Below, in pieces: positions 44,724 to 59,383 of a DNA stretch of 64,000 nt. The stretch is from Pleurotus djamor (taxonomy: Eukaryota > Basidiomycota > Agaricomycetes > Agaricales > Pleurotaceae): positions 1 to 64,000 of the forward strand of contig JAPEVF010000019.1 in the NCBI GenBank assembly GCA_029747585.1, given 5' to 3'. The position numbers and the translations under genes were made by a program. Each line of letters starts with the position of its first letter. Position 1 is the stretch's first letter. Under the pieces are notes generated by a model, which saw only the letters and a program-made list of their open reading frames with translations, did not search any database and was not told where the DNA came from.

Positions 44724-45580
44724 ATGTTCAAATTTACATTCATTGTCCTCACATTTCTCTTCGCCTCATTCCCCATCCAAGGTTTCAAAGTGACCGACCC
44801 TATCGCAACTCCAGGCCAGATCAAAGCCGACGTCAAGCATATTGACACTTCCTTCAAAGCACTCCGTGCCGCAGTAGATGCGCTCCCAGTGGATAAACCC
44901 ATGGAAACTCTGGGCATGACGGTTCTTGTACGTGAATTCGTTGATCCCAAATAATGTACGCTCCTCACCACTGACTCGCCGTTTCGCTGGCTCTAACATA
45001 CTCTAGACTATTCATGCGATCTCTGCTATGTTGAGTAGCGACTTAAACACAGCGAGCCTTCATCTCAAGGTATGGTCGCTCATTTCCCCTCTCATCACCA
45101 ATCGCCCTAACCTCCGCATACTTGAACAGATAGTCGACACACTTCCCGACGACGACAGCCGCGTCGTTCTATCCGCCATTCGAGGCATTGAGCCGACCAT
45201 CAATTCTACTGTCCACACGGTGCGTTTTATCTCTCTCCTCTCATCTCCTCCCGGACTATCCCTCAACCTAGCACATCCCCTGATATTGAAACAGCTAATC
45301 GCGAAGAAAGTGGCAGTGGAAGCATTCCCTTTTGCAGTCTCCACCCTCCAAGGTAGCCTCCGACTCCTCGATTTCTCGATTATGCGGTTCTTCGAGAAGT
45401 GTGTTGGTGCTTTCCCCGTGAGTTGTTTCCTCGCGTTTGTGTGTCCATTTTTCCAACATCATTCATCGTTATGACGTTTATAACGCGATGCAGGCGGCAC
45501 TTTTTAATGAAACGTCCGCATGTGAAGATCGCATTCATAAATCGCTTGAAAGTGCTGTGGATGCATACACAATTGCGTAG
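44724..45580 (+). CDS. HsbA-family secreted protein 1
   Basis: Five exons: 44724-44927, 45007-45069, 45130-45219, 45295-45417 and 45494-45580, all phase 0, 188 residues. The signal peptide is MFKFTFIVLTFLFASFPIQG. The mature chain starts VTDPIATPGQIKADVKHIDT and continues as helices: FKALRAAVDALP; an exon-2 helix (IHAISAMLSSDLNTASLHLK); VDTLPDDDSRVVLSAIRGIE and PTINSTVHT; LIAKKVAVEAFPFAVSTLQG; and a last helix ending ESAVDAYTIA. This 'DVK.ID' start, '.IEPTI...', '.IAKK.A...P' and '...A.DAY' ending match the HsbA/cell-wall galactomannoprotein domain (PF12296). Founding members bind hydrophobic surfaces and recruit hydrolases. I chose the Met at 44,724 over an upstream in-frame Met at 44,685 because it gives a clean signal peptide and aligns with the paralogues. 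Confidence 0.87.
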
Positions 45581-45779
45581 AGGCTGTGAAATTTGATCTC
45601 CCCGAATATTCGCGTCGTGTCCATACTTATCCATCTTCCATTCACCCGTTTGTTTCGTCTTAGCACGCGTGTAGCAAGGTCCAGAAATTCTTCGAGTCTC
45701 TGTAAGAGTCTTAGTGCTGCAAGTTGTGTTTTGTACCGATATGGCTCTGCGCATCTTTGCTGGTGGTCTAGCATTCAAA

Positions 45780-46504
45780 GATAAAATGAGCCCGAGGAGA
45801 TTTGGGGCAAGATAATTGACGGCTTCTGACTATCTCGGAAAACTCGGCCGCTCTGACTCGTCTGACTATTTATAACCTGGTATAAGCTCTACCTGCATTC
45901 GTCAGTGCGCTTGAGCCACTTACCACCTCATACAGAATCTCCTCCAAGTCATCAGCGTGAGCAGCGTTATCCCATCGACCTGCGTGCCGGAACACTTATT
46001 AGCGAGGCTAGGAGGATCAGGAGGATCTCCTATCGGAGCCCACTGTGAGCGCCTTCTGGGATTCCGTTCCGTTCCTCCATGACCACTCGACAACCGCTCG
46101 AAGAAGATACCAGAGCGATGAGCGCAAGAGTACTTGGTTCTTTTTGCCCCACTCTTCTCTGCCCATTCTGATCCTAGCATTTCGGAAGGACAATTCTGAA
46201 TATTGGAACGTTGAACGGCGAATGCTGATGAATCGATCAACACCCAGGTCCCACTAGTGGGCTCATTTACGTGGGTGCAGAGCACGAGAAGCATCAAATA
46301 TAAATCTTATCAAACACTTTGATGGCATGCCGGTGAACGATCGTGGCTAATACAGGTTGTCGCAACATCGTGTCCACATGAACGTTGACACTAAGTTCAA
46401 CTACTCTCGCCATCTGCATCAACTTTTCCTTAGCCTTCCGAGTCCGGATATCAGCATGTATCGTTCTGTAGATACATCTACTCTGCTTGAAGCAGCACTC
46501 TGCG
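45780..46504 (+). repeat. Duplicated 5' flank of HsbA genes 2 and 4
   Basis: This upstream region is similar along its whole length to 55,632-56,293, the upstream region of HsbA gene 4. Shared segments include CAGCGTTATCCC.TCGACCTGCGT, GACCACTCGACAACC.CT, CACTAGTGGGCTCATTTACGTG and GCAGAGCACGAGAAGCATC. The duplication therefore includes promoter as well as gene. No other gene lies here. Confidence 0.8.
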
Positions 46505-46511
46505 TATAAAT
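46505..46511 (+). promoter_or_regulatory. TATA box of HsbA gene 2
   Basis: TATAAAT in TGCGTATAAATACTCC, 61 nt before the ATG at 46,566. The block GCGTATAAATACTC.ACTGCTCACCTC is repeated at the same distance in front of HsbA gene 4. Confidence 0.65.
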
Positions 46512-46565
46512 ACTCCACTGCTCACCTCGAGTACGAGCAGACTATCCATCTCTCCCATTGTCACC

Positions 46566-47667
46566 ATGTTCAAACCCATCCTTCTTGCCATCCTCCTTGC
46601 CTCCTCCGCCATCGCCTCCACAACCACCACCCTCACCGACCCTCCCACGCCCGCCTCACCCTCGCCCTCACTCTCACCCGCCTTACATACCTCCTTGAAC
46701 ACCAACCCCAACATCCAGATCAACAAAAAGCGCATCCCGCAACCTTTGATGAAGGAATTCCCCAAGCTCGTCATGACTATCGAGAGATTCGAGAATGAAG
46801 CCACCCACTTCCCTGATGAGAATCCCGCTCCGGTTGATGCTCTCGTGCGTCGTCTCATTAATATCCCTTGAACACTCACCTCTACATCTCGACAGGCGTT
46901 CCAAGAAAGGTTCTCCAATGTGAACACGGAATTGAGGACTGTCACTAAGCTTGTCAAGGTATGTACTCTAGTACGTATCAGTATATCAGTACCACGATTC
47001 TTACCCTGCCCTACCCCTACCCCTACCCTACTCTTATCCTTCACGGATAATCAAAGGATTCAGGCTCTCTCTCCGAAGCCGACAGCGTGGATATCATCTC
47101 CAATGCAGAGAATATGGAAGGAGCCTTTAACTCGGCGATGAAGGTGGTGCGTTCTTGAAACACCTCCCTCCCTCCCTCCCTCTCCCTCCCTCCTCTCCGA
47201 GTCCTCCTCTTCCCAAATCCCTCTTCCCTCTTCCCTCTTCCCCACCATCCAAAAAAAAACACATTTTAAAAAAAGTTAAAAAAAACAAACAAACAGTTAA
47301 CCACCAGAAAACACGCACTCCAAAGCTTCCCCCTCGGAAGCGGGGTCTACACAACCCGCGACAACCTCATCCGTCTCGATGACACAATAATGAAGTTTTA
47401 CGACCAGTTTTTGCTTACTTTCCATGTACGTGTCCGCTCCATCCTTTGTTCTTCGTTCTTCGTTTGCCTCCCTCCTTTCACCGTTTTCTCTTCACCGTTT
47501 TCCATTTTCTATTTTCCATTTTCCATTTTCCATTTTCATATTTTGGGCTACGTCTCATGGTGATGTGGTACCCTTGGATTTGTTAGAATTCCACGACGTG
47601 TCGGGTGGCTGTTCTCAAGAAGGAGATCCATCGTGTTTTCCAGGGTGTTATTGATGCATACGCGTAA
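46566..47667 (+). CDS. HsbA-family secreted protein 2
   Basis: Five phase-0 exons: 46566-46844, 46896-46958, 47057-47146, 47297-47425 and 47587-47667, 213 residues. Signal peptide MFKPILLAILLASSAIAS. A Thr/Pro/Ser-rich linker absent from gene 1 follows (TDPPTPASPSPSLSPALHTS), then the HsbA helices: LMKEFPKLVMTIERFENEA, AFQERFSNVNTELRTVTKLV, LSEADSVDIISNAENMEGAF, TRKHALQSFPLGSGVYTTRD and VAVLKKEIHRVFQGVIDAYA. The exon-4 acceptor is the CAG at 47,294-47,296, giving LTTRKHALQ in frame; the later AG would shift the frame. The introns hold A-rich (47,250-47,295) and 7-nt TTCCATT (47,500-47,539) repeats. It lies tail-to-tail with a decayed Ecl1-like copy. Probably a secreted surface protein; the long proline-rich spacer may be O-glycosylated. 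Confidence 0.9.
47500..47539. repeat. 7-nt tandem repeat in intron 4 of HsbA gene 2
   Basis: About four to five copies of TTCCATT with variants. The same intron of HsbA gene 4 holds a shorter CATTTTC/AATTTTC version, and that of HsbA gene 6 holds about nine copies of a different 7-nt unit. Confidence 0.7.
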
Positions 47668-48784
47668 CGGTAAGAGGAGTTTAGAGTTACAAGTTGGAGT
47701 AGAGGCACTTGTTGCATCACGCGTCGTGCCTTGTTTGTCTGTCTGAATCATTCATCAATGCATCACTTGTCACTTCGTCTATTGCACTGGCACTCAACAT
47801 GCACCGTTGTTTCGCTCTTGTTCTCATCCTCGTTTTCTCCTGCATTGAGTGAGACTGAGACGACTACCCTGGGGGAAAGATGGCGCATCTTTACGAGAAA
47901 CTGGAGGAATTGGAGGTGCTGCCATTTTGAACGATTCTCCACGCTGCGACCGGAGTCAGACCGGAGCATGAATCTTGAATCAATCTTGGTTGAAAGCCGC
48001 TGCTTCGTGTACCCATCAACGTTTCGATAGACCACAGTGATCACCTACTATCGTACTCTACTCTATAGTAAAGTACTACCATGTATAATCTACTTATACA
48101 ATCACTGCGTGAGGTGATTGGTTTTCCGCGCGGAAAACCTGGCAGGTCAAAACACACGGTCTTTGAATTTGTTTTCACGGTAGAAAACGTTAGCTTCCCC
48201 TGTCGGAAAACTAGATAGAAAATAATAACTTTTCTGATAAGTCTTCACAAAGGAAATCTTGAATCAATCTCGTGTATCCATCAACGTTTCAACTGACCAT
48301 AGGTCATCTATAGTACTCTAGAGTACCGGTGCATCATCTACTTATAATAATGTCAGTCAAGCAGGGAGTCAAAATACAATGGGCACATTTGATTCAAGCC
48401 TGAGCTCGGGTGGTGCGGAGGACGGTAAGCGAAGTATGACGGGATATCCACTCTGAAGGGAGTACATACTCTACATGCAGCCGTTCGGTCGGATTTAGAG
48501 ATCGACATGGGTGGGCAGGGGGAGTCTGATAGGAGATGGGAGATGGAGGTATGAGCAGTTAGATACCGAGGAACGGTCGAAGTACGGACGGGTCGGGGAA
48601 CGAGAGGGTTTGTTCGAAGCCACACATGAGTCGTAGTGGATGGGGGTATAATGATAGAGTATATGTCACAATGAGGCTGTGTTGAGGGTGGGATGGGAAG
48701 CAACCAGAGCCAACGGAGGAGCGAACAGGGACTCTAGGGATAAGCTGAACGATGGCTCGATGACGTGTTGATGATGAGGTGATG
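47668..48784. repeat. Duplicated spacer between HsbA gene 2 and Ecl1-like copy a
   Basis: Most of this spacer is matched, with gaps, by 57,421-58,019 downstream of HsbA gene 4: the blocks AAAGATGGCGCATC, ACGATTCTCCACGCTGCGACC, and GATACCGAGGA with flanks. Internally, 47,965-48,040 (CTTGAATCAATCTTGG, CCATCAACGTTTCGA) recurs as a direct repeat at 48,255-48,300. No intact gene is seen. Confidence 0.65.
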
Positions 48785-49520
48785 GGAGTCGGTTCACATG
48801 CCTGAATACGGAGTACACGGTGCAACGGCGGCAGCCACCGACCAACAGACTCGATGTTCAGGTGCACCAGGTAAACCAATACCAATACTCGGAGACCCCG
48901 TTTTTGCATGCGCAGAAGCAGCGACAAAGGTAGAGAGGACAGAAAAACACCAGGTCGCAGCGTTTTTCATAAGAGCGACAACACGACGCCATCAATAGAC
49001 TAGGCGCATGGCATGGGCTGCGATGACATGGCAGTGTTGGGGGAGAGAAGCACCCACGAGGACGATAGGGTGGATATTGGAGAGAAGGGGAGGGGAAAGG
49101 GTACTAGGGAGATCTTGCGACAAGGATCCGGAGGTCATCAAATCGGGAGGCGAACATGATGCTTGGTGGAGGCGGCGGCGGGTTTGATGTGGGGTTTTCT
49201 TCATCTAATATGATGACGTTGTCGGCAGCAAAGTCAATCCTCTGGGATCTGCTGAGGACCTCGAGACTGATGAACATTTGAACCGGCGTTCTCACCAGCA
49301 TTCGACGACGCATATGCCTCGCATTGATGGAAGCTCTGTCGGCTCGATCGCAGACAGCGGTTTGAGTGGATTCACGCTCATACTTGAGAGCAGTCTCCCC
49401 AGAGTCACGATTCTATCGCCACGGTGGTATGGATGGTCATCGTGAGTCGTGACGAACAAGTGATGAATACAGTGGGCATGGGTGAAGGGGATATCAAATG
49501 TATGCACTGGACTTGATCCA
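48785..49520 (-). pseudogene. Ecl1-like copy a, decayed
   Basis: Minus-strand relative of the intact gene at 49,698. Recognisable pieces in order: EENPTSNPPPPPPSIMFASR (compare EPTPNPSPPPTSSMFASAHD in the intact gene), PLPFSPISTLSSSWVLLSP, a stop codon, then MKNAATWCFSVLSTFVAAS and GLPGAPEH (compare MKEAATWCFPLLSAFVVAT and GLPGALER). The N-terminal zinc motif is not preserved; sequence around the expected start instead resembles copy d at 58,280-58,400. The in-frame stop and missing motif make it a pseudogene. It lies head-to-head with copy b, about 180 nt apart, and tail-to-tail with HsbA gene 2. Confidence 0.65.
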
Positions 49521-49697
49521 ATGAGAGTCTGAGAGAAGAGAGCGATGCGTGAGTCGTGACGTGGGCTGCCAGATCAGCCTGGAAGGAGGAGTAGGCGGAG
49601 AAAAGAGTCGACGGTCGAGCGCTCAGTAAGTGGATGAACCAGTCACACGACGTCACACATCACGCTCTCTTTTTCTCAACGACGTCGACGAACAGCC

Positions 49698-50538
49698 ATG
49701 GACACGGACTGGTGTCTCCTCTGCGGAACCTATTCTCCAGTACGCACCCGACTAGACACCCTGGCATCCCAATTGAACTTAGTAGGCTGGCCAACCGTAT
49801 TGCTCCGATAGGTGCAGCCGAGCGGACAGCTTCTATGCATCGATGTCACAGCAACCCGAAGGAAGGTGGGCGGATGAAGGGAGCGGGGGTGTGATTGAGC
49901 AAGCAGACGATGAACTCGGCCTCGACCCGTCGTCTGCAAGCTCACAACATCACGGGACCAACGATGGTTCATCAGCATCCTCAACAGCCCCAGAAGAGGC
50001 GCCTTCTTCACCGCCAACGTCTCCCAACATGGGACCTATCGTAGCCGAGGAAGACGAGCCCACGCCGAACCCATCCCCGCCGCCAACAAGCAGCATGTTC
50101 GCCTCTGCGCATGATCTGACAATCTCTTCGTCCCAGTTCAACCAAGTCGGTCGGGATCAACACAGTGCGTTCCCCGTTCCCCATCGACTCGCTGCCTACT
50201 CATTTGATTCGGTCCTAGTTTCGCATGTCGCCAACCACCACCACGTATGCAACCCTCTCAAGGTTCTTCACCTTCCCCTCCCACTGCCATTCTCTCCGTC
50301 TTCCACGCTCGCATCCTGGTGGGCGCTTCTCTCCCCCGACACAGCATTCGAATCGCCGCCCACACGTCTGACCTGGTTCCCTGGTATCGGAGGCTCCGTG
50401 TCGACGTCACTCATGAAGGAAGCCGCAACATGGTGCTTCCCTCTCCTCTCTGCCTTTGTTGTCGCTACTGTGTATGTCAGCACACTGGACTCGGGTTCTT
50501 CGACTCGTCTTGGGTTACCTGGTGCACTCGAGCGCTGA
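49698..50538 (+). CDS. Ecl1-like CxxC...CSxxC protein (intact copy b)
   Basis: Three exons: 49698-49739, 49786-50164 and 50219-50538, 246 residues. Exon 1 encodes MDTDWCLLCGTYSP; exon 2 opens AGQPYCSDRCSRADSFYASM after an acceptor ending TTAGTAG. The joined DWCLxC...YCSxxC motif matches the short zinc-binding motif of the Ecl1/2/3 family, known in fission yeast as extenders of chronological lifespan that respond to nutrient and metal limitation. The rest of exon 2 is acidic and Ser/Pro-rich (EEAPSSPPTSPNMGPI, EEDEPTPNPSPPPTSSMFAS), as in fungal homologues. Exon 3 continues SHVANHHHV and ends LMKEAATWCFPLLSAFVVAT. The frame is supported by decayed copies a and c, which conserve the same residues. 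It is the only one of four copies with motif and frame intact. It converges on HsbA gene 3. The cellular role here is inference. Confidence 0.7.
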
Positions 50539-51025
50539 ATCATTTGCCCGACATTAATCTGTCCTGCCACGCGAAGCAAACGATCCTTACACCCGACCTA
50601 GCATCTCTGACTACCGACACGAGTCCTTGGTCATAGCACCCCGCATACGATGATCCATATCCCAAAGCCGATCGACTTGTCACAGGTCGTTCAGAACCTC
50701 CATGTCCCTATCTCCGCCGGTCTCCGCATCTCCGCCCGCATCCTCTTCACCCTATCAGTTGTTTCACGGTTAAGCATAAAGTTCGCGTGTATCTTATAAT
50801 ACTGTACTCTATACGGGATGAACGCGACAGTTGTTGCCATCGTTGAGGTTGGTCGTTTGCAGGACGGGCATGCCAGTTCGCTATAAGGGCAAGAGAAAAA
50901 CAATGTAGGTGTACTCTAGGTGGAATCTCGGGTCTCGAGAAGACGAATAAGAAACAACTGTGCATGACAAGAAATAAATGGCAAAGGGGTCGTGATAACC
51001 AACTTCAAGTGAGTGTCTAACTCCT

Positions 51026-51909
51026 CTACGCAGCTGCGTATGCATCAATAGTGTTCTGGAATATGGTGTGAACTCTCTTCTTGAACACAGCTATCCGGCA
51101 CGTAGTGGAGTTCTAACAAAATAAGAGCAATGTAAACATCAATCCGAATGTGGAACTGCAAAAGGGGGAGCGGTGCGTACATGGAAAACAAACAAAAACT
51201 GCTCATACTTCTTCATCGTTGCGTCATTGAGACGGACAAGGTTGTCGTGTGATGTGAAAACCCCAGATCCAAGGGGGAAGCTTTGGAGTGCGTGTTTCTT
51301 TGTCATGAACTGGTATTTCAGGGATTATTGTGGGTAGCGAAGATTCTGGAGAGAAGTGGGAGGAGGTAGAATGAGAACGTACCGCCTGCATCGCCGATTC
51401 AAAGCCTCCTACCATCATCTCTGCTTCGGAGATGATTTCCCGACTGTCGGCTTCGGAGAGGGACCCCAAGGCCTTTGTGATACGTTATATAATAAGATGT
51501 TGAGGATATTTGAATCAGAGCCAATCGTCATACCTTAACATGACTTGTATAAGTCTTCAAGTTCTCGTCCAACTTGGTGAAGCGGTTTTGGAGGATCTGT
51601 AGGGTAGAATATACCCAAGCCCACAAAGGGATGTATATGAGTAGGAGACTTCCAGGGAGATGAATTGGGCAGACGCACAACAGCATCACTCAGAGTAGGA
51701 TGTTCATCAGGGAAGTTGGTGGCTTCGTCTTCGATTGCTTTGAGAACAATGGTGAAACGGGCTAGGTCGTCTTTCAATGGCGACGGTATGCGTTTGTTAA
51801 GGACCTGGATGTTGTGGCTGGGGCGGGTATCTGAGGAGATCAGAGGGTGGGTGAGGGTGGAGATGGCGGAAGACGCAAGGAGGATGGCGAGAATGATGGT
51901 TTTGAACAT
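51026..51909 (-). CDS. HsbA-family secreted protein 3
   Basis: Minus strand, five phase-0 exons: 51909-51679, 51596-51534, 51472-51383, 51309-51181 and 51112-51026, 199 residues. Signal peptide MFKTIILAILLASSAISTLT. A spacer shorter than in genes 2 and 4 follows, then LARFTIVLKAIEDEATNFPD, ILQNRFTKLDENLKTYTSHV, LGSLSEADSREIISEAEMMV, FMTKKHALQSFPLGSGVFTS and a last helix ending FQNTIDAYAAA. Exons 2, 3 and 4 are 63, 90 and 129 nt, identical in length to genes 2 and 4. An AATAAATA element (complement of 51,996-52,003) about 90 nt upstream may serve as TATA box. It is tail-to-tail with the intact Ecl1-like gene, about 490 nt between stop codons. Likely a secreted, surface-active wall protein. Confidence 0.9.
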
Positions 51910-52632
51910 GGTGACTATCGGGGAGGTAGAGACTTGTACGTGAGGTACTTGGCTGGGGACGAATGTGAAATAGAAAGGACGGTTTGAAGAACTAAGCAGT
52001 ATTTATTGCCGAGTGTAGCGTTGAGAAGATGGTAAGCATGTGGGGATGTCCTCGATCCTTTGAGAGTCAGTAATAATGCACCCGTACACTGGCATGTCAT
52101 CAAGATGCTTGACGAAATTATCGGCTCCCGTGTCAATGCTACACGCGCATGCCGCATGTGCAAGCAGATGATGGATGTAACCATACCCGCGAGATGGCGG
52201 CGGCGGCGTTGGTGGCATTCAGCGTATACGGGAGCACTGGGCTCACACTATATTCGAGGCTCGTATCTTGATTCTGACTGGGAGGGATGGATTGAGGAAC
52301 GAACGGGGGTACAGTGGAGGAGTTTACTCCATGCGCAGAGACGAGATGGGTAGGATACTCTCCTTTAAATGTCCTTGACGCAGATCAAATTCGGTGAAGG
52401 GGGTGCGACTTGGGGACGTTTCTGTAGTACCTGGTAAACGATACCAGGATCCGGTATTGAGACTCACATATTGAGATGGCTCGAATCATGAAGGCCGTAC
52501 GCGTCTGAACGAGATTTTGGAGGGTTTGTGTAAGAAAGGCGGTGCGGATGCGGGTTGGATGCGGGTACGGTCATGGCGTCACATGTCACATAGCACGCGT
52601 CTGGCTCTCTTTTTCTCAACGACGTCGACGAA
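51910..52632. other. Divergent spacer between HsbA gene 3 and Ecl1-like copy c
   Basis: About 720 nt. It contains the promoters of the two divergent units. The 50 nt before 52,633 (TCTGGCTCTCTTTTTCTCAAC then GACGTCGACGAA) match the 50 nt before the intact Ecl1-like gene at 49,698, so the promoter-proximal region was duplicated with the gene. No other gene seen. Confidence 0.55.
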
Positions 52633-53310
52633 ATGGACACGGATTGGTGCCTCCTCTGTAGCACTCATTCTCCCGTACGCATACTTGTCTACTCTGCACA
52701 CCCTGGTATCTCAATTGAACTCAGTAGGCCGGCCAACCGTACTACTCGGATAGGTGTAGCCAACCGGACAGCTTCTATGCGTCGATGTCACAGCAACCTG
52801 TCGGGTCAAGGGAGCGGGAGTGTGATTGAGCAGGGAAACGATGAACTTGACCTCGATGCATCGTCTGCGAGCTTACGACACGGTGGGGCGTACGCGTCAT
52901 CGAATGCTGGGACGCCAACGACGGTTTATCGGCGTCCTCAACAACCCCAGAAGAAGCACCTTCCTCACCGCCAACGTCTCCCAACATGGGACCTATTGTA
53001 GCTGAGGAAGACGAGCCCACGTCGAACCCATCCCCGCCGCCAACAAGCTCTGTGCACGATCTCACAATCTCTTCGTCGCAGTTCAACCAGGTCGGTCGGG
53101 ATCAACACAGTGCGTTCCCCGTTCCCTATGAACTTGTTGCCCGCTAACACGATTCCTTTCTAGTTTCCCATGTAACCAACCACCACCACGCATACAACCC
53201 CTGCAAAATCATCCCCATTCCCCTCCCACTACCAACCTCCACTCATGCTTCCTGAGTCGGGGGCATCCTCTCGTCTGCGTCTGCCTGGTGCGCTCGAGCG
53301 CTAAATGACT
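52633..53310 (+). pseudogene. Ecl1-like copy c, decayed
   Basis: Starts like the intact copy (MDTDWCLLCSTHSP, donor GTACGC, acceptor ending CAGTAG, then AGQPYYSDRCSQPDSFYAS), but one motif Cys is Tyr (YYS for YCS). After MSQQP an 11-nt net deletion shifts the frame and brings an early stop. A second indel lies near 52,880-52,915. Further on the original frame is again recognisable (EEDEPTSNPSPPPTS, SSSQFNQVGRDQH, an intron, then SHVTNHHHAYNP) but ends early. These lesions make it a pseudogene. The 3' flank matches that of copy b (CGAAGC.AACGATCCTT, CCGTTCAGAACCTCCATGTC). Confidence 0.75.
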
Positions 53311-53630
53311 TGAACCCTTCATCATTCTGTCCTGCCACGCGAAGCCAACGATCCTTCCACCAAACCTACATCTCTGACCGCTGATTCTCTCCTGGATATC
53401 GACTCAAGTCCTTGGTCATAACACCCCGCATACAATGATACATATCAGAGCCGATCGATTTGCCACAGGCCGTTCAGAACCTCCATGTCCATGTCAACGC
53501 CCGTCTCCATATCTCCGCCCACATCCCCTTCCCTATCACTGCTGTTGTCCGCCTAGTCGCCTAGCCTTGCCGTACAACAACAAGCAGGACTGAGAAATAC
53601 TCGCGTGGAAGTGACGATGAACAAACGTAC

Positions 53631-53835
53631 ACGTTCTTGCTCCGGAGTAGGCTTGGTGCCGGGAGTGATATTGGCGGCGGCGGCTTCAAGTTCCTTTGAA
53701 AGATCCACGAGCTTGGATACGTCTGATTCGATTCTTGATGAGAGTATTATTATTGACGTTGGGGGAGAGGGGGGCGGCAAAAGTGGAGATGGTGGAAGAG
53801 GCGAGCAAAAAGCTGATGACGAGGAAGTTGAGCAT
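53631..53835 (-). pseudogene. HsbA exon-1 remnant
   Basis: The minus strand encodes a signal peptide (MLNFLVISFLLASSTISTFA, then APLSP). After a one-base frame slip it reads SRIESDVSKLVDLSKELEAA and ANITPGTKPTPEQER, then a GTACGT donor at the same place as in HsbA gene 5 (compare EADMSSLVDRSKEFEGAVAN and LTPGKPTPVQMH). The exon is 205 nt, not a multiple of three, unlike the phase-0 first exons of all complete members. No exons 2-5 follow. It is therefore a broken relative of gene 5, lying tail-to-tail with Ecl1-like copy c. Confidence 0.75.
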
Positions 53836-53849
53836 CGTGGAGACTGAAG

Positions 53850-53890
53850 CTGATCGCAACGAACACAGTGCGTTCCCTGTTCAAGTTCTC
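53850..53890 (+). repeat. Isolated Ecl1-like exon/intron junction fragment
   Basis: GATCGCAACGAACACAGTG followed by CGTTCCCTGTTC and a CTAG closely matches the exon 2 donor and intron of the Ecl1-like genes (GATCAACACAGTGCGTTCCC). It sits directly beside the start of the HsbA remnant, a scar of rearrangement rather than a gene. Confidence 0.5.
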
Positions 53891-54521
53891 TAGGCACTCA
53901 TCGTTGATCTTGCCTCAGTCTTCCATGTACCACACCAGGACTTCGTGCAGTTTGTTTGATCTATACCAAACCCTCGTCCCACTGAGTCCCTCTTCGTCGC
54001 CGGTGTTGATGGCATCGTATTATCCAAAGCAATTGCGACATTGATCTCCTCTATGGACCAGGGGTCGGTGGCGGCGCCGTTGGAACCCTTTGGTGACGTT
54101 TCGTACTACTACGCGTCAATCAACTTTTGGGTCGGTCCCTCCGGAAGCAGGCTAGTGCACGTCAATGCCCCTTCCGAAGGGCTCTCAACATGCGCTACGC
54201 GTAGGCGGAAACAAATATATCAACTTCATCACCGAGCTAATCAATGGTCACTTACTCTAGATGAATCGTCGAATCGTGGGGACGCATATGGGTACCCATG
54301 CTAGAAGCGCCGTTCGACGGTTTGAACGTCCGGATGTCGAGCAACCGCAGTCTACCCAGCATCCGTATGAACGATGTCAGTAAGTTCTCGAATTCCATCG
54401 TTTCATGTACATAAAACTGAGCGTATAAAAGGCATGGACTCTCAACGACTTTTACCAGCAAGCTCATCCCACTGCGAGCTCAACTTGGAACGTCAACTTG
54501 AACTATTTATCAATCTCCACG
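53891..54521. other. Upstream region of HsbA gene 5
   Basis: About 630 nt. Includes a TATA box, TATAAAA at 54,424-54,430, 92 nt before the ATG at 54,522. An open plus-strand segment at 54,041-54,300 (FGDVSYYYASINFWVGPSGS) has no recognisable domain and no splice partners. Confidence 0.4.
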
Positions 54522-55332
54522 ATGTTCAAATTCCTCTTCCTCGGCCTTTTCATCGTCTCTTCCACCATGTCCGCCTTGGCCTTCCCTCTGTCACCCGCAC
54601 TTGAAGCTGACATGTCAAGCCTTGTCGATCGTTCTAAGGAATTCGAGGGTGCCGTTGCCAATCTCACTCCCGGCAAGCCTACTCCGGTCCAAATGCATGT
54701 ACGTAGCATCATCTTCTACATCCCACCCTACAATATCCGTTCTCACTCCTCTCCTTCCGGTAGGCGGTCCAGAGTCAGGGCGCTGCGTTGAACAAGGCGT
54801 TGGAGACCGCTAAGCAACATATAAAGGTCTGCTCTCCTCTTCTGCATACGAAAGGCATGTTTTGTTTATACTGCTCGACCGGAATTCTAGGCGGCCGGTA
54901 CGCTATCTAATGCTGACAATCTTGTTGTCCAGAAAGGTTTTACGGATATGAAACTGCATGTAGTCTCCGCTATGAAGCAGGTGGGTCTCCCCCTACGTGC
55001 CGATCTGACCAATCTCAAAATCTCGGTCCTCCCCACCTTCACTTGTAATTTCTTAGATGGAACCGTTTGCTCGCGGTGAGGCCCTAGAAAAACTGCGTGA
55101 AAACACAGCGCGGCTCGAAGGAATCGACTTGCCGATTGACCCAATGCCTAACCTTGTCGTATGTCCCTCCCCTCCCCTTTCTTTTCTTTTTTTGGCGCAA
55201 TTATACACGATTCTGACTCTGCTTTTGGTCCCCTTACTCGATATTGTTGTGTAGGAGCTCCTCATCGCAGTTCGCAACTCCTTTGATGACCTCCCGGGGT
55301 TAGGATTGGGGGGCTTAATTCCAATTCCTTAG
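54522..55332 (+). CDS. HsbA-family-like secreted protein 5 (divergent)
   Basis: Five phase-0 exons: 54522-54698, 54764-54826, 54891-54980, 55057-55158 and 55255-55332, 169 residues. Signal peptide MFKFLFLGLFIVSSTMSALA. Helices follow: LEADMSSLVDRSKEFEGAVA, AVQSQGAALNKALETAKQHI, AAGTLSNADNLVVQKGFTDM, MEPFARGEALEKLRENTARL and ELLIAVRNSFDDLPGLG. Primary similarity to the other HsbA genes is weak, but exons 2 and 3 keep the 63- and 90-nt lengths, intron positions agree, and TLSNAD matches the TLSGAD/SLSEAD of the paralogues. It lacks the 'KK/RKHALQSFP' exon-4 block and the DAY ending. Probably a divergent member, paralogous to the broken exon at 53,631-53,835. The in-frame Met at 54,498 is rejected because it would precede the signal peptide by eight residues. 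Confidence 0.75.
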
Positions 55333-56293
55333 CTTCCCAGACCGTTGGCTCGCGAATTATAGTCTGACACTGAAGACAATCTCTATACCAGTACTTCTAC
55401 ACCTTATACTCTAAATGGCATAATGCATACTCTATGTAAAGTACGTGCTAGAAGTCGGTGGAACAGATTTTAGATATTACAACGCCGTTCTGGTTGTGCA
55501 AGGATAAAGACAGAAGTAGAAGGAGTCCAGTCGCTCTGGACGAGATTTGGAGGACACCGAGAAGGAACAAGCAACAAACGAAATTTATTCCGATGAAGAC
55601 GGACTTGTCAACTTTACGCATGATGTATTATTCAAGTATAAAAGAAGCCCAAGGAGAGCTGGGGCAAGACAACCGACTTCAGAGAATTCGCCGCCGCATT
55701 GGCTTGTCTGACTACTTATAGCCTGATATATACTCGACCTGCATTCTTAGGTACGCTTGAGCCCGAGCATCATCAGCGTTATCCCGTCGACCTGCGTCCC
55801 GGACCACTTGTTATCAAGGAGGATTCAAGGAGTATCAGGAGGGTCTCCTACCCTGTGGGCGCCTCCTGGGAGATCGTTCCGTCCCTCCATAACCACTCGA
55901 CAACCACTTGAACAAGATACTCTACATGAGCACTTGACTCTCTTCTGCCCATCCTTGTACTAGCATTTCGGAAGGTAAACGCTGAATGTTGGAACGTTGA
56001 ACGGTGAATGCTGATGAATCGATCAACACCCACTAGTGGGCTCATTTACGTGGGTGCAGAGCACGAGAAGCATCAAATAATCCTATCAAACACGTTGACA
56101 GAATGCCGGTGAACAATCGTGGCTGAGAGAGTACGGCCGTATGGGCTATTGCAGCATTGTGTCCACATGAACGCTGACACTAAGTTCAACTACTCAAGAC
56201 ATCCGCATCAACGTTTTCTTATCCCCCGGGGTTCGGGTATCAGCATTTCTCGTTCTGTATATGCATTTGCTCGGCTTGAAGCCACACTAGGCG
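55333..56293. repeat. Duplicated 5' flank of HsbA gene 4
   Basis: From about 55,632 this region parallels 45,780-46,504 upstream of HsbA gene 2, with many substitutions and small indels. The first 300 nt (55,333-55,631) are the 3' flank of gene 5 and show no gene. Confidence 0.7.
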
Positions 56294-56300
56294 TATAAAT
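56294..56300 (+). promoter_or_regulatory. TATA box of HsbA gene 4
   Basis: TATAAAT in GGCGTATAAATACTC, 60 nt before the ATG at 56,354. Same block and spacing as HsbA gene 2. Confidence 0.65.
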
Positions 56301-56353
56301 ACTCTACTGCTCACCTCAATTTCAAGCAGACTCGCCATTTCTCCGTTGTTGCC

Positions 56354-57420
56354 ATGTTCAAAACCATCCCCATTCTTCTTGCCATTCTCCTTGCCTCCTC
56401 CTCCATCGCCTCCACAAATAACACCCTTACCAATCCCCTCTCACCCCTCTCGCCCTCGCCCTCACCCACACCCGCCTTACATACCTCCTTGAACACCAAC
56501 CCAAATATCCAGATCAACAACAAGCCCACCCTTTCAACTTTGAAGGAGGCATTACCCAAGCTCGTGATGACTGTCAAGAGATTCGAAAATGAGGCCACCC
56601 ACTTCCCTGATAAGAATCCCACCCTGGTTGATGGTCTCGTGCGTCCACCTAATTCATCATGTTTTTCAAACCCTTCTGATTAATGTTGGAATCGTCATCG
56701 TCATCATCGTCACAAAACTATCCTTGAATAATCACCTCTACACCTCTACAGGCTTTCCAAGAAAGGTTCTCCAATGTGAACACGGAATTGAACTATGTTA
56801 GCGATCTTGTCAAGGTATGTAGAGTATGTATCAGTATCAGTACGACGATTCTTACCCTACCCTACTCTATCCTTCACGGATGAACAAAGGGCTTGGGATC
56901 CATCTCCGCAGCCGACAGTGCGGATATCATCTCTACTGCAGAGAATAGGGAAACAGCCTTCAAGTCGGCGATGAATGTGGTGCGTTCTTTCTACTCCTTC
57001 CTTCCTTCCTTCTTCCCTCCCTCCTCTTCCGGGATCCCGAATCTCCACCTCCACCACCCCAAAAACACACATTCTGAAACAGTGAAAAAAAACCCCCAGT
57101 TAGCCACCAGAAAACATGCACTCCAAAGCTTCCCCCTCGGAAGCGGGGTGTATACAACCCGCGACAACCTCATCCGTCTTGATGACGCGGCGATGAAGTT
57201 TTACGACCAGTTTTTGTTTGCTTTCCATGTACGTGTGGCTCCATCCTTCGTTCTTCCATTCTCCATTTCTCATTTTCAATTTTCAATTTTGGGCTCATAT
57301 GTCTCATGGTGATGACGTCCTTGGATTTGTTAGAATTCCACAACATGCCGGGTAGCTATTGTCAAGAAGGAGATTCATCGTATCTTGAAGGGTGTTATTG
57401 ATGCATACGCAACCGCGTAG
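56354..57420 (+). CDS. HsbA-family secreted protein 4
   Basis: Five phase-0 exons: 56354-56638, 56752-56814, 56890-56979, 57100-57228 and 57334-57420, 217 residues. Signal peptide MFKTIPILLAILLASSSIAS, then a Thr/Pro/Ser linker (SPLSPSPSPTPALHTS) and the HsbA helices LPKLVMTVKRFENEATHFPD, AFQERFSNVNTELNYVSDLV, SISAADSADIISTAENRETA, ATRKHALQSFPLGSGVYTTR and VAIVKKEIHRILKGVIDAYA. It is the closest relative of gene 2: promoter, introns and 3' flank are all shared, so both arose by a segmental duplication of several kb. It faces Ecl1-like copy d tail-to-tail. Function as for the family: a secreted, surface-active wall or adhesion protein, by inference. Confidence 0.9.
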
Positions 57421-58019
57421 GAGGAGTTAGAGTTAAAGGCACTTGTTCATCACGCATCATGCCAACTTATTTGTCATTCATCATTGGTCAATTTGTCTAT
57501 TGTCATGCGCCGTTGTTTCGTTCTCGTTCTCGTCTTCTCTCGCCTTGATTGAGATTGAGACTAATCTACACCTAGGGAAAGATGGCGCATCCTTACGAGG
57601 AACCGGGGGAACCGGGGGTGCTCCCATTTGGCTCCCATTGTGAACGCGACCAACTTCAACGATTCTCCACGCTGCGACCGGAGCCAGACCGGAGCATGAA
57701 CCTCGGATCTGGTTGAAAGCCAATGGGTCATGTTCCTGGCATTGTGTACTCTACTCTAAAGCCCTATGATAAGTGCAGTATGACAGGAAGGCCACTCCGA
57801 AAGGACTTGGGCATACATGCAGCCGCTCGGGTTCAGAGATTGATGCGAATGGATGGGGAGGGTCTAATAAAAGACAGAGATCTGAGCACTTAGATACCGA
57901 GGATGGGTCAAAGCATGGACGGGAGGGGAACGGGAAACTGGGAGGAACTTGAAGTGGTTGGTAACATGAGAAACTACTAGTACAGTGAGATGTTGATGAG
58001 ATGAGAGCGCAACGAGGAC
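57421..58019. repeat. Duplicated spacer between HsbA gene 4 and Ecl1-like copy d
   Basis: Parallels 47,668-48,610 downstream of HsbA gene 2 (for example AAAGATGGCGCATCCTTACG, CCACGCTGCGACCGGAG, ACATGCAGCCG, TTAGATACCGAGGA), with a deletion of several hundred nt relative to it. No gene is supported. Confidence 0.6.
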
Positions 58020-58420
58020 TCGGACACGAGGAACAGGGAACACACTGTGTTGAAAATCAACCTTGGCTACCTTGGGTGAACTGCGACGGAGAGGTCATGA
58101 GTCTCATCAGATCGTGAGCGGAGGCGAACATACTCCTCAAAGTTGATGGAGGCGGCGTCGGGCTTGATGTGAGCTCTCCTTCATCTAATACGATGAATTC
58201 CAAGTTTAGTAGCGAAGTCGATCCTCTGCGATAATTCCTCCGAGTCCCCGCTCTCCACAGCACTCCCCGGACAGTAAATACATCAATGGTCATCCTGGTG
58301 AACACAGTGGGCACAGGGTGAAGCGGAACTTATTCGTACGCACTGGACTTCCGCAGGTGCCAGTGAGACTCCAGATCCATGGACATCGACGGGAGAAGAG
58401 AAGAGGAGAGGGCGACTCTG
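58020..58420 (-). pseudogene. Ecl1-like copy d, decayed
   Basis: On the minus strand the region of the expected start reads ATGTCCATGGATCTGGAGTC, aligned to the intact ATGGACACGGACTGG start but with the Cys codons lost through indels. Next comes the AAGTCCAGTGCGTACG intron start shared with copy a, then LLNLEFIVLDEGELTSSPTP and SMFASAHDLMRLMTSPSQF, matching the middle of the intact protein (PPTSSMFASAHDLTI). It ends near an AACACAGTGTGTTCCC junction. The zinc motif is destroyed and the frame is broken. Confidence 0.65.
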
Positions 58421-58581
58421 CGTCAGTCCTGACAAAGTGTGACCGTCCTCGCATGACGAGGGGAGAGCCAAACTTGATGCGTGAATGAGCTGGTTCAAGC
58501 TGTATACATGGCGCATTTGAATACTCTACAGTACATCTGAGCATCGTATGGGGCATTCCGATCCCGAATTTCAAGCCAATT

Positions 58582-58696
58582 TCAAGCGGTAGCGAAGGCA
58601 TCGATGGCGGTTTGGAAAAGTTTATGGAGGTCGTTACACAGCCGCGTGACTTGGGCAGACATATTCGTCTGGACGGACGACGGAAAGAGCGAAAGT

Positions 58697-58762
<66 letters not shown>

Positions 58763-59332
58763 AGAAGTCGAGAATGGAAGAAGTCAGAACCACGGGAAAT
58801 GACGAACAAAACCAAAAACCAAAAACCAAAAACGAACACACAAAAACGAGTGGAAATTCAGAACTAGAGTAAAAAGGAAAAAGATGGAGGTGACGTACCG
58901 GGATGGCACGTAACATACTAGCACACGTTCTCGCCATACAATCATCAATGGACTCGAGGTCATCATGGACGAGTGTAACGCTATTCGACAGCGCGAGGTG
59001 TTTGACCGCCTCTTTCTTCGCGATTAACTGTTTTGGAAACGGGACGAGGTGAGGTGAGTATTCAAGTTGATGCATTTGAGAAGGGGGAGGTGGAGAGCAG
59101 CAAACCATTGTCATAATAGAACCGACCGTTGGTTTTAACCCCTCGAAATCCATTATGATGCTTTGGCTATCGGCTCCAGAGAGGGTTCCCGTTGCCTTCG
59201 TATGGAGTAGAGTAGAGTAGAGCACCTTCAGCGTAAGGCATAATGTAAAAGAGGAGCGAAAAGCCGCACCTTGATATGCTCACTCGTGGTATTCAAATTC
59301 TGACTCAACATCTGCGCTTTGGAATGGATAGC
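58582..59332 (-). CDS. HsbA-family protein 6, missing its first exon
   Basis: Minus strand exons: 59332-59270 (63 nt), 59195-59106 (90 nt), 59027-58899 (129 nt) and 58668-58582 (87 nt), exactly the lengths of exons 2-5 of the complete paralogues. Protein pieces: AIHSKAQMLSQNLNTTSEHI, ATGTLSGADSQSIIMDFEGL, LIAKKEAVKHLALSNSVTLV and LCNDLHKLFQTAIDAFATA. The last intron contains two 7-nt tandem repeats. Just upstream of exon 2, where exon 1 with the signal peptide should lie, the sequence enters an N-rich patch (59,354-59,383) and then a different gene on the other strand. The truncation is thus probably an assembly fault and the real gene may be whole. It resembles gene 1 in its LIAKK block. Confidence 0.85.
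58697..58760. repeat. 7-nt tandem repeat (AGAAAGT)n in HsbA gene 6 intron 4
   Basis: About nine head-to-tail copies of AGAAAGT, followed at 58,808-58,834 by a second 7-nt repeat, CCAAAAA. Both lie inside intron 4, the same intron that carries 7-nt repeats in HsbA genes 2 and 4. Confidence 0.85.
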
Positions 59333-59344
59333 CTACCAGAAACC

Positions 59345-59383
59345 AAAACACCANAACCNCNCCATTNAAANANATNCCTCAGN
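59345..59383. other. N-rich junction, likely misjoin
   Basis: Ten Ns are scattered over about 30 nt (59,354-59,383) exactly where a minus-strand HsbA gene loses exon 1 and a plus-strand Egt1 gene loses its N-terminal part. Scattered rather than contiguous Ns suggest a forced overlap of two contig ends. Confidence 0.75.

What the first reader, a model, noticed from the sequence alone, without database searches (positions are those of the whole stretch)
46566..59332. HsbA and Ecl1-like genes co-amplified as tail-to-tail pairs
Four Ecl1-like copies exist here and every one lies 3'-end to 3'-end with an HsbA copy: HsbA2>/<copy a, copy b>/<HsbA3, copy c>/<broken HsbA, HsbA4>/<copy d. Copies a and b are also head-to-head, so HsbA2-a-b-HsbA3 forms a near palindrome of two modules about 49.6 kb. 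A surface-active secreted protein and a small nutrient/lifespan-type Cys-motif protein travelling as a unit is, to my knowledge, not described. Either the pair is a functional module (shared regulation, overlapping 3' ends) or it is a duplication-prone segment.
Basis: partly seen in the sequence, partly recalled or inferred. Interest (0 to 1): 0.8.

Follow-up and report, generated by a model that had tools for sequence, protein, structure and literature searches.

The report
Mushroom surface-protein gene cluster with hitchhikers
In the pink oyster mushroom a cluster of duplicated genes for likely secreted surface-binding proteins carries along mostly dead copies of a neighbouring zinc-motif gene, so the repeated pairing looks like a by-product of gene duplication rather than a working two-gene unit.

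Summary
The window is Pleurotus djamor. The tail-to-tail layout is real on this contig: 4 of 4 Ecl-type copies face an HsbA 3' end (p 0.009; 0.035 after collapsing one duplication). But there are not four Ecl1-like genes. Only copy b is intact: its cysteines sit at 6, 9, 20 and 24, as in fission-yeast Ecl1, and it is under purifying selection (dN/dS 0.25). Copy c is broken; a and d are relics without the cysteine module. The apparent other haplotype (contigs C160, C248) lacks HsbA3, c and the broken HsbA, so there b has no convergent HsbA. The pairing recurs mainly with dead a-type copies: HsbA2/a, HsbA4/d and a paralogous locus on C567/C584. HsbA2-a and HsbA4-d are one segmental duplication, and HsbA4 on C248 looks partly converted toward HsbA2. 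Best reading: birth and death of an HsbA array with a hitchhiking neighbour, not a functional module. The freshest part is b, an Ecl1-type gene with relatives found only in P. djamor.

The parts
44724..45580 (+). HsbA1, 5 exons, phase-0 introns, 188 aa
   Evidence: model; PF12296 44.9 bits; counterpart split between contigs C160 and C248
46566..47667 (+). HsbA2, 5 exons, 213 aa (public model g1498 skips exon 4)
   Evidence: (34.4 bits); dN/dS 0.27 against C248
48857..49412 (-). Ecl-type copy a: relic of the C-terminal half of b, no cysteine module found, three frames, two stops
49698..50538 (+). Ecl-type copy b, the only intact one in the window: exons 49698-49739, 49786-50164, 50219-50538; 246 aa, identical to NCBI ONZ45_g1499
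51026..51909 (-). HsbA3, 5 exons, 199 aa; no counterpart on contig C248
   Evidence: (35.2 bits)
52633..53572 (+). Ecl-type copy c: pseudogene (Tyr for Cys20, frame-breaking indels, 187-nt deletion, stop)
53625..53850 (-). broken HsbA, exon-1 remnant, resembling HsbA5
50543..53947 (.). 3.4-kb segment (HsbA3, c, broken HsbA) present here and replaced by about 250 bp on C248
54522..55332 (+). HsbA5, 5 exons, 169 aa
   Evidence: (27.0 bits, below cut-off)
56354..57420 (+). HsbA4, 5 exons, 217 aa, NCBI ONZ45_g1503
   Evidence: (29.5 bits, below cut-off)
58060..58329 (-). Ecl-type copy d: open frame holding a relic (58072-58206) that matches residues 95-134 of b
58582..59329 (-). HsbA6, exons 2-5; exon 1 missing at the N-rich junction but readable on C248
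   Evidence: (38.4 bits)
55630..58232 (+). direct segmental duplicate of 45773-49248, carrying HsbA4 and d as copies of HsbA2 and a

Best explanation
This is an HsbA (PF12296) array of a mushroom, evolving by birth and death, in which a neighbouring Ecl1-type gene was carried along. An ancestral block HsbA> <a b> is found here and again at a paralogous locus (C567/C584); a direct duplication of HsbA2-a made HsbA4-d. Most HsbA copies stayed intact; the a-type copies and copy c decayed. In the window only copy b is a working Ecl-type gene: the four-cysteine module of Ecl1 at its N-terminus, a Ser/Pro-rich acidic linker, a motif shared with other P. djamor reading frames, and a borderline hydrophobic C-terminal stretch. 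The repeated tail-to-tail geometry comes from that ancestral block plus local rearrangements, and no joint function is shown. Shown: gene structures, decay, purifying selection on b and on five HsbA genes, presence/absence between two contigs, an HsbA2-like mosaic in HsbA4 of C248. Inferred: that C248 is the other haplotype, that the mosaic is gene conversion, that HsbA proteins act as secreted surface binders and b as an Ecl-type zinc protein.
For: Direct duplication 45773-47998 / 55630-57721 with 48426-48605 / 57770-57935 and 49135-49248 / 58104-58232. Decay of a, c, d against purifying selection on b (dN/dS 0.25 with C248, p 2.7e-8, coding length changes of 24, 6 and 3 nt; 0.22 with C808) and on HsbA1 (first three exons), 2, 4, 5, 6 (0.15, 0.27, 0.42, 0.31, 0.09). 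Segment 50.54-53.95 kb missing on C248, where b' is followed by HsbA5' in the same direction. HsbA4' of C248 matches HsbA2 at 96, 91 and 98% in three 200-column blocks where it matches HsbA4 at 83, 73 and 91%. At C567/C584, which match each other at 92.8% over 2.2 kb, an HsbA gene faces an a-type relic with a stop. Passages of PMC5872309 say HsbA evolution was shaped by multiple duplications.
Against: Of the 7 a-type relics counted, 6 have an HsbA converging on their 3' side, so the HsbA/a linkage is old and survived duplications; past selection could explain that. One duplication does not fully explain 4 of 4 (collapsed p 0.035). b/HsbA3 and c/broken HsbA are not copies of one pair, since the broken HsbA resembles HsbA5, so convergent pairs arose more than once. 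HsbA2/HsbA3 dN/dS is 0.64 (p 0.025), so constraint on HsbA3 is only weakly shown. No expression data were available.
Confidence: 0.77

Rival explanations
1. The convergent HsbA/Ecl pair is a functional module: shared chromatin or overlapping 3' UTRs couple a secreted surface protein to a nutrient-sensing zinc protein.
For: 4 of 4 convergent on C518 (p 0.009); HsbA>/<a recurs at C567/C584; b and HsbA3 both intact with stops 487 bp apart.
Against: The Ecl-type partner is dead in a, c, d and in the C567/C584 a-types. The pair b/HsbA3 is missing on C248 although b' is intact there. No HsbA seen 3' of the b-types on C584 (1.1 kb held), C567 (3.2 kb held) and C808 (under 0.8 kb, contig end), though C584 and C567 are broken themselves and C808 is ambiguous. 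Coding ends do not overlap.
Confidence: 0.09
2. The layout is an assembly artefact: copies of one locus were stacked by the assembler.
For: The 50.54-53.95 kb segment has no counterpart on C248; the N-rich stretch at 59354-59383 looks like a bad join, since HsbA6 exon 1 is missing there but readable on C248.
Against: C160 and C248, separate contigs, repeat HsbA1-HsbA2-a-b and HsbA5-HsbA4-d-HsbA6. The copies are too diverged to be one locus: HsbA2/HsbA3 dS 0.48, b/c dS 0.47.
Confidence: 0.07
3. C248 is not the other allele but a further paralogous locus, so the missing HsbA3 segment says nothing about polymorphism.
For: Identity is mosaic, 69-100% per 250-bp block, and inner genes have higher dS (0.22-0.32) than outer ones (0.07-0.09).
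Against: C160 ends and C248 begins inside HsbA1, tiling C518; outer blocks are 82-100% identical on the left and 89-98% on the right; gene order matches on both sides of the segment.
Confidence: 0.12

Closest known systems
HsbA / PF12296 small secreted proteins and antigenic cell-wall galactomannoproteins (Aspergillus oryzae HsbA)
   Same: PF12296 match, hydrophobic N-terminus, 169-217 aa for HsbA1-5, multiplied by duplication as passages of PMC5872309 report for the family
   Different: Mushroom copies with weak scores (27-45 bits); no binding or enzyme recruitment tested, unlike A. oryzae HsbA (passages of PMC9394342); array differs between contigs and holds Ecl-type relics
Ecl family (PF12855; S. 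pombe Ecl1, zinc-binding TORC1 inhibitor)
   Same: Copy b has cysteines at 6, 9, 20 and 24, Leu7 and Asp22; passages of PMC11984688 give Cys6, 9, 20, 24 for Ecl1, position 7 often hydrophobic and position 22 mostly acidic elsewhere. An Ecl1-like reading frame at C575 aligns with b at 12 of 25 N-terminal residues and, spliced by eye, keeps the same cysteine spacing
   Different: 246 aa instead of 80; PF12855 only 10.2 bits against a cut-off of 28.3; extra motif and borderline hydrophobic C-terminal stretch; relatives found only in P. djamor
Birth-and-death arrays of fungal secreted-protein genes (recalled as a general kind; HsbA duplications)
   Same: Local duplications, pseudogenes, presence/absence, conversion-like mosaics
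   Different: An unrelated neighbour gene was co-duplicated and mostly lost

Membership tests
HsbA (PF12296) | Pfam profile match above 33.5 bits | tested here: met
   4 of 6 models pass (HsbA1 44.9, HsbA2 34.4, HsbA3 35.2, HsbA6 38.4); HsbA4 29.5 and HsbA5 27.0 do not, but share the five-exon structure, and HsbA4 is 77% identical to HsbA2
HsbA (PF12296) | secreted protein with N-terminal signal | tested here: inconclusive
   hydrophobic N-terminal 19-mers (1.58-1.92 Kyte-Doolittle) in HsbA1-5; no signal-peptide predictor available
HsbA (PF12296) | binds hydrophobic surfaces and recruits enzymes | not testable with these tools
   needs protein; described for A. oryzae HsbA (passages)
Ecl1 (PF12855) | four conserved cysteines at 6, 9, 20, 24 | tested here: met
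   copy b and its C248 counterpart: met; copy c: Tyr for Cys20; a and d: module not found (positions from PMC11984688 passages)
Ecl1 (PF12855) | Pfam profile match above 28.3 bits | tested here: not met
   copy b 10.2 bits, C248 counterpart 13.8, P0003 8.3; the N-terminal fragment at C575 scores 17.3, with PLATZ at the same score
Ecl1 (PF12855) | inhibits TORC1, extends chronological lifespan | not testable with these tools
   no expression or genetics here
Functional convergent gene pair | pair kept together where both genes are alive | tested here: not met
   b/HsbA3 present on C518; on C248 b' is intact and has no convergent HsbA. This is one comparison: the other b-type copies without a visible HsbA are broken (C567, C584) or ambiguous (C808)

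The most novel reading that the evidence does not exclude
Copy b founds a Pleurotus-specific branch of Ecl proteins: a membrane-anchored, zinc-dependent TORC1 regulator (Ecl1 cysteine module, a motif shared with other P. djamor reading frames, hydrophobic C-terminal stretch) sitting in a haplotype-variable secreted-protein cluster, so that the two nuclei of a dikaryon carry different HsbA sets beside one conserved Ecl-type regulator, which could tie substrate attachment to nutrient state.
Probability: 0.1. Interest if true: 0.6.

Novelty: new member of a known kind. Interest (0 to 1): 0.3.

Why it matters
It shows how a striking repeated gene geometry can come from duplication plus decay: the pairing is most regular where one partner is dead. 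It gives an example of HsbA copy-number change and apparent conversion in a cultivated mushroom, and it points to one intact, selected gene (b), found only in P. djamor so far, with the cysteine spacing of Ecl1 although the Pfam profile scores it far below threshold: a test case for how far the Ecl family reaches in basidiomycetes.

Tried and rejected
Own-genome family searches: PF12855 found nothing, and PF12296 three sub-threshold exon matches; six-frame exon searching is weak for intron-split genes, so protein queries were used. These tools score only best candidates, so counts are lower bounds. Of the 30 places, 18 lie in the copies discussed here; the other 12 (C1374, C1070 twice, C189, C506 three times, C842, C727, C14, C563, C1079) share only the central motif or less and were not counted as Ecl-type copies. 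A DNA pattern for MDTDWCLLC found 6 places, 0 in the reversed control; a looser one gave 26 against 8 and was not used. Structure prediction of copy b was too poor to use (mean pLDDT 42, four sequences), so no fold search was made. Solved-structure profile search with the HsbA alignment: 12 sequences up to E 1, the best two named 'Uncharacterized protein' (5j5k, 5j5l; E 8e-9, 1.5e-8), not followed up. Pfam scans of five other reading frames with the motif found no family. Weak tblastn matches left in the window (18.9-21.9 kb, E 5e-5 to 0.007) and on C985 and C1 (composition correction off) were not counted.

Literature: no held paper has both 'hydrophobic surface binding' and 'Ecl1'; PF12296 with Pleurotus gave one paper, whose Pleurotus passage concerns galactan. 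PMC11984688, PMC9394342, PMC7105643 and PMC5872309 were seen as passages only; all others as search listings with abstract starts. Synteny in other agaricomycetes could not be tested: no other fungal genome could be searched, and the protein search gives no context.

Full report
WHAT IS THERE. The window is bases 1-64000 of contig C518 of a 55.9-Mb, 1413-contig assembly. Database hits name the organism as Pleurotus djamor: HsbA2 matches ONZ45_g1498, copy b is identical to ONZ45_g1499, HsbA3 is g1500 and HsbA4 is g1503. As g1498 and g1499 are consecutive numbers, no gene seems to have been called for copy a.

I built spliced models for HsbA1-6. HsbA1-5 have five exons with phase-0 introns and GT-AG borders; HsbA6 has exons 2-5. 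Four of six pass the PF12296 cut-off; HsbA4 and HsbA5 score 29.5 and 27.0 against 33.5.

THE ECL-TYPE COPIES. Copy b (exons 49698-49739, 49786-50164, 50219-50538) reads MDTDWCLLC...YCSDRC, with cysteines at 6, 9, 20 and 24, Leu7 and Asp22. Passages of PMC11984688 give Cys6, Cys9, Cys20 and Cys24 as the conserved, function-critical cysteines of fission-yeast Ecl1, and say that position 7 is often hydrophobic and position 22 mostly acidic in other members. Yet PF12855 gives 10.2 bits against a cut-off of 28.3. An Ecl1-like reading frame of the same genome, cut by a contig end at C575:61378-61670, aligns with b at its first 25 residues (12 identical); spliced by eye it keeps the cysteine spacing, with its intron one codon earlier, and it too fails the profile (17.3 bits). 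I call b Ecl1-type by motif, not a profile-confirmed member.

Copy c has Tyr for Cys20 and carries frame-breaking indels, a 187-nt deletion and a stop. Copy a survives as pieces in three frames with two stops, and d as one stretch matching residues 95-134 of b; neither shows the cysteine module.

IS THE GEOMETRY MORE THAN CHANCE? Shuffling gene order gives p = 0.009 for 4 of 4 convergent copies on C518, and shuffling strands 0.008. Counting HsbA2-a and HsbA4-d once, since they are one duplication, gives 3 of 3 and 0.035. C248 has 2 of 3 and p = 0.29.

THE APPARENT OTHER HAPLOTYPE. The end of C160 and nearly all of C248 (12,217 bp) tile C518 from 43.8 to 59.4 kb, with identity of 69-100% per 250-bp block. 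Written in C518 direction they carry HsbA1, HsbA2, a, b, HsbA5, HsbA4, d, HsbA6. HsbA3, c and the broken HsbA (3.4 kb) have no counterpart; about 250 bp stand in their place. There b is followed by HsbA5 in the same direction, not tail-to-tail. HsbA3 and c are old (dS 0.48 to HsbA2, 0.47 to b) compared with outer divergence (dS 0.07-0.09), so loss from C248 is likelier than recent gain; this is inference, as is the allelic status of C248.

OTHER LOCI. A paralogous locus lies on C567 and C584, which are 92.8% identical over 2.2 kb and so probably alleles. There an HsbA gene is followed by a convergent a-type relic: C567:17628-17975, and its 74%-identical counterpart at C584:45802-46608. Both have a stop in the central motif. 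On C584 a remnant LLCGTYAPS of the cysteine module is visible; its matches are weak on their own (E 0.004-0.005). If real, the a lineage once had the full gene. Of 7 a-type relics counted, 6 have an HsbA converging on their 3' side (a and d on C518 and C248, C567, C584); the seventh (C584:53916-54008) has none in the 1.5 kb held.

Seven places in the assembly carry a b-type or Ecl1-like cysteine module or its remains. Two have a convergent HsbA (C518 b; C518 c with a broken one). C248 does not. C584 (1.1 kb held), C567:21.6 kb (3.2 kb held) and C808 (under 0.8 kb to the contig end) show none, but C584 and C567 are broken and C808 has ambiguous bases. C575 cannot be judged. An eighth protein, P0003, comes from a 3,216-bp contig that I did not see. 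HsbA-type matches on C1144, C996 and C281 have no Ecl-type match in the 2.3-5.9 kb held; C475, with two weak profile matches, gave no tblastn match to either family.

SELECTION AND EXCHANGE. Copy b against C248: dN/dS 0.25 (p 2.7e-8), coding length changes of 24, 6 and 3 nt. HsbA genes against C160/C248: 0.15 (HsbA1, first three exons), 0.27 (HsbA2), 0.42 (HsbA4), 0.31 (HsbA5), 0.09 (HsbA6). HsbA2 against HsbA3: 0.64 (p 0.025). HsbA4' of C248 is nearer HsbA2 than HsbA4 in several blocks of its middle and 3' half, most clearly 96, 91, 98% against 83, 73, 91%, while upstream it is nearer HsbA4. Ectopic gene conversion would give this. C248 has an ambiguous base and a one-base length change in that gene, so its frame there is uncertain.

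MECHANISM. The best-supported account is birth and death of an HsbA array. An ancestral block HsbA> <a b> explains HsbA2-a-b and the C567/C584 block; a direct duplication made HsbA4-d; HsbA3, c and the broken HsbA are older local rearrangements present on one of the two contigs. The a-type partners were carried along and died. HsbA proteins likely act as secreted surface binders, as A. oryzae HsbA does (passages), and b as a zinc-binding Ecl-type protein; both functions are inferred from family resemblance. Nothing seen here shows that HsbA and Ecl-type proteins work together.

NOVELTY. HsbA expansion by duplication is known (passage of PMC5872309). No held paper contains both 'hydrophobic surface binding' and 'Ecl1', so the adjacency may be undescribed, but it looks incidental. 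Copy b is the part worth keeping: intact, selected, with relatives only in P. djamor at the thresholds used (4 proteins at E <= 1 for full length, 3 at E <= 10 for residues 1-45). The HsbA2 search likewise returned only P. djamor (4 proteins), so the restriction may partly reflect database sampling and fast evolution.

Noticed in passing
window 59354-59383: N-rich stretch where HsbA6 exon 1 is missing; exon 1 is readable on C248, so this looks like a bad join. The gene to its right (59.4-62.2 kb, which I recall as resembling ergothioneine-synthesis Egt1; no call made) may lack its 5' end too.
   Followed up: partly
window 48.2-58 kb against C248: dS between the two contigs is about 2.5-4 times higher inside the cluster (b 0.26, HsbA4 0.32, HsbA5 0.22) than at its edges (HsbA1 0.07, HsbA2 0.09, HsbA6 0.08), while blocks from 45263 to 46310 are 100% identical.
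   Followed up: partly
L028, L012 (C506), L009 (C1070), L008 (C1374), L021 (C842), L022 (C727), L010 (C189): Unrelated reading frames share a motif like SAHDxxISSSQFNQVGxDQ with copy b; the five scanned (L028, L009, L021, L022, L012) have no Pfam family.
   Followed up: partly
L094 (C575:61378-61670): Apparent canonical Ecl1-like gene of P. djamor, cut by the contig end; its fragment also fails the PF12855 cut-off.
   Followed up: partly
window 46566-47667 and C248:3610-4647: Public gene models P0006 (HsbA2) and P0007 (HsbA4 of C248) skip exon 4.
   Followed up: no
C584:54894-55736 and C567:21560-22260: Although the two contigs look allelic at the HsbA genes, the C584 b-type copy is much closer to C518 b (dS 0.27) than the C567 one is (dS 0.82), which suggests exchange between loci.
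   Followed up: no
window 52728-52800 and C567:21621-21680: Copy c and the C567 b-type copy share the same change, YYSDRC for YCSDRC, in the cysteine module.
   Followed up: no
window 58700-58760: Short tandem array of a GTAGAAA-type unit inside the last intron of HsbA6, seen by eye.
   Followed up: no
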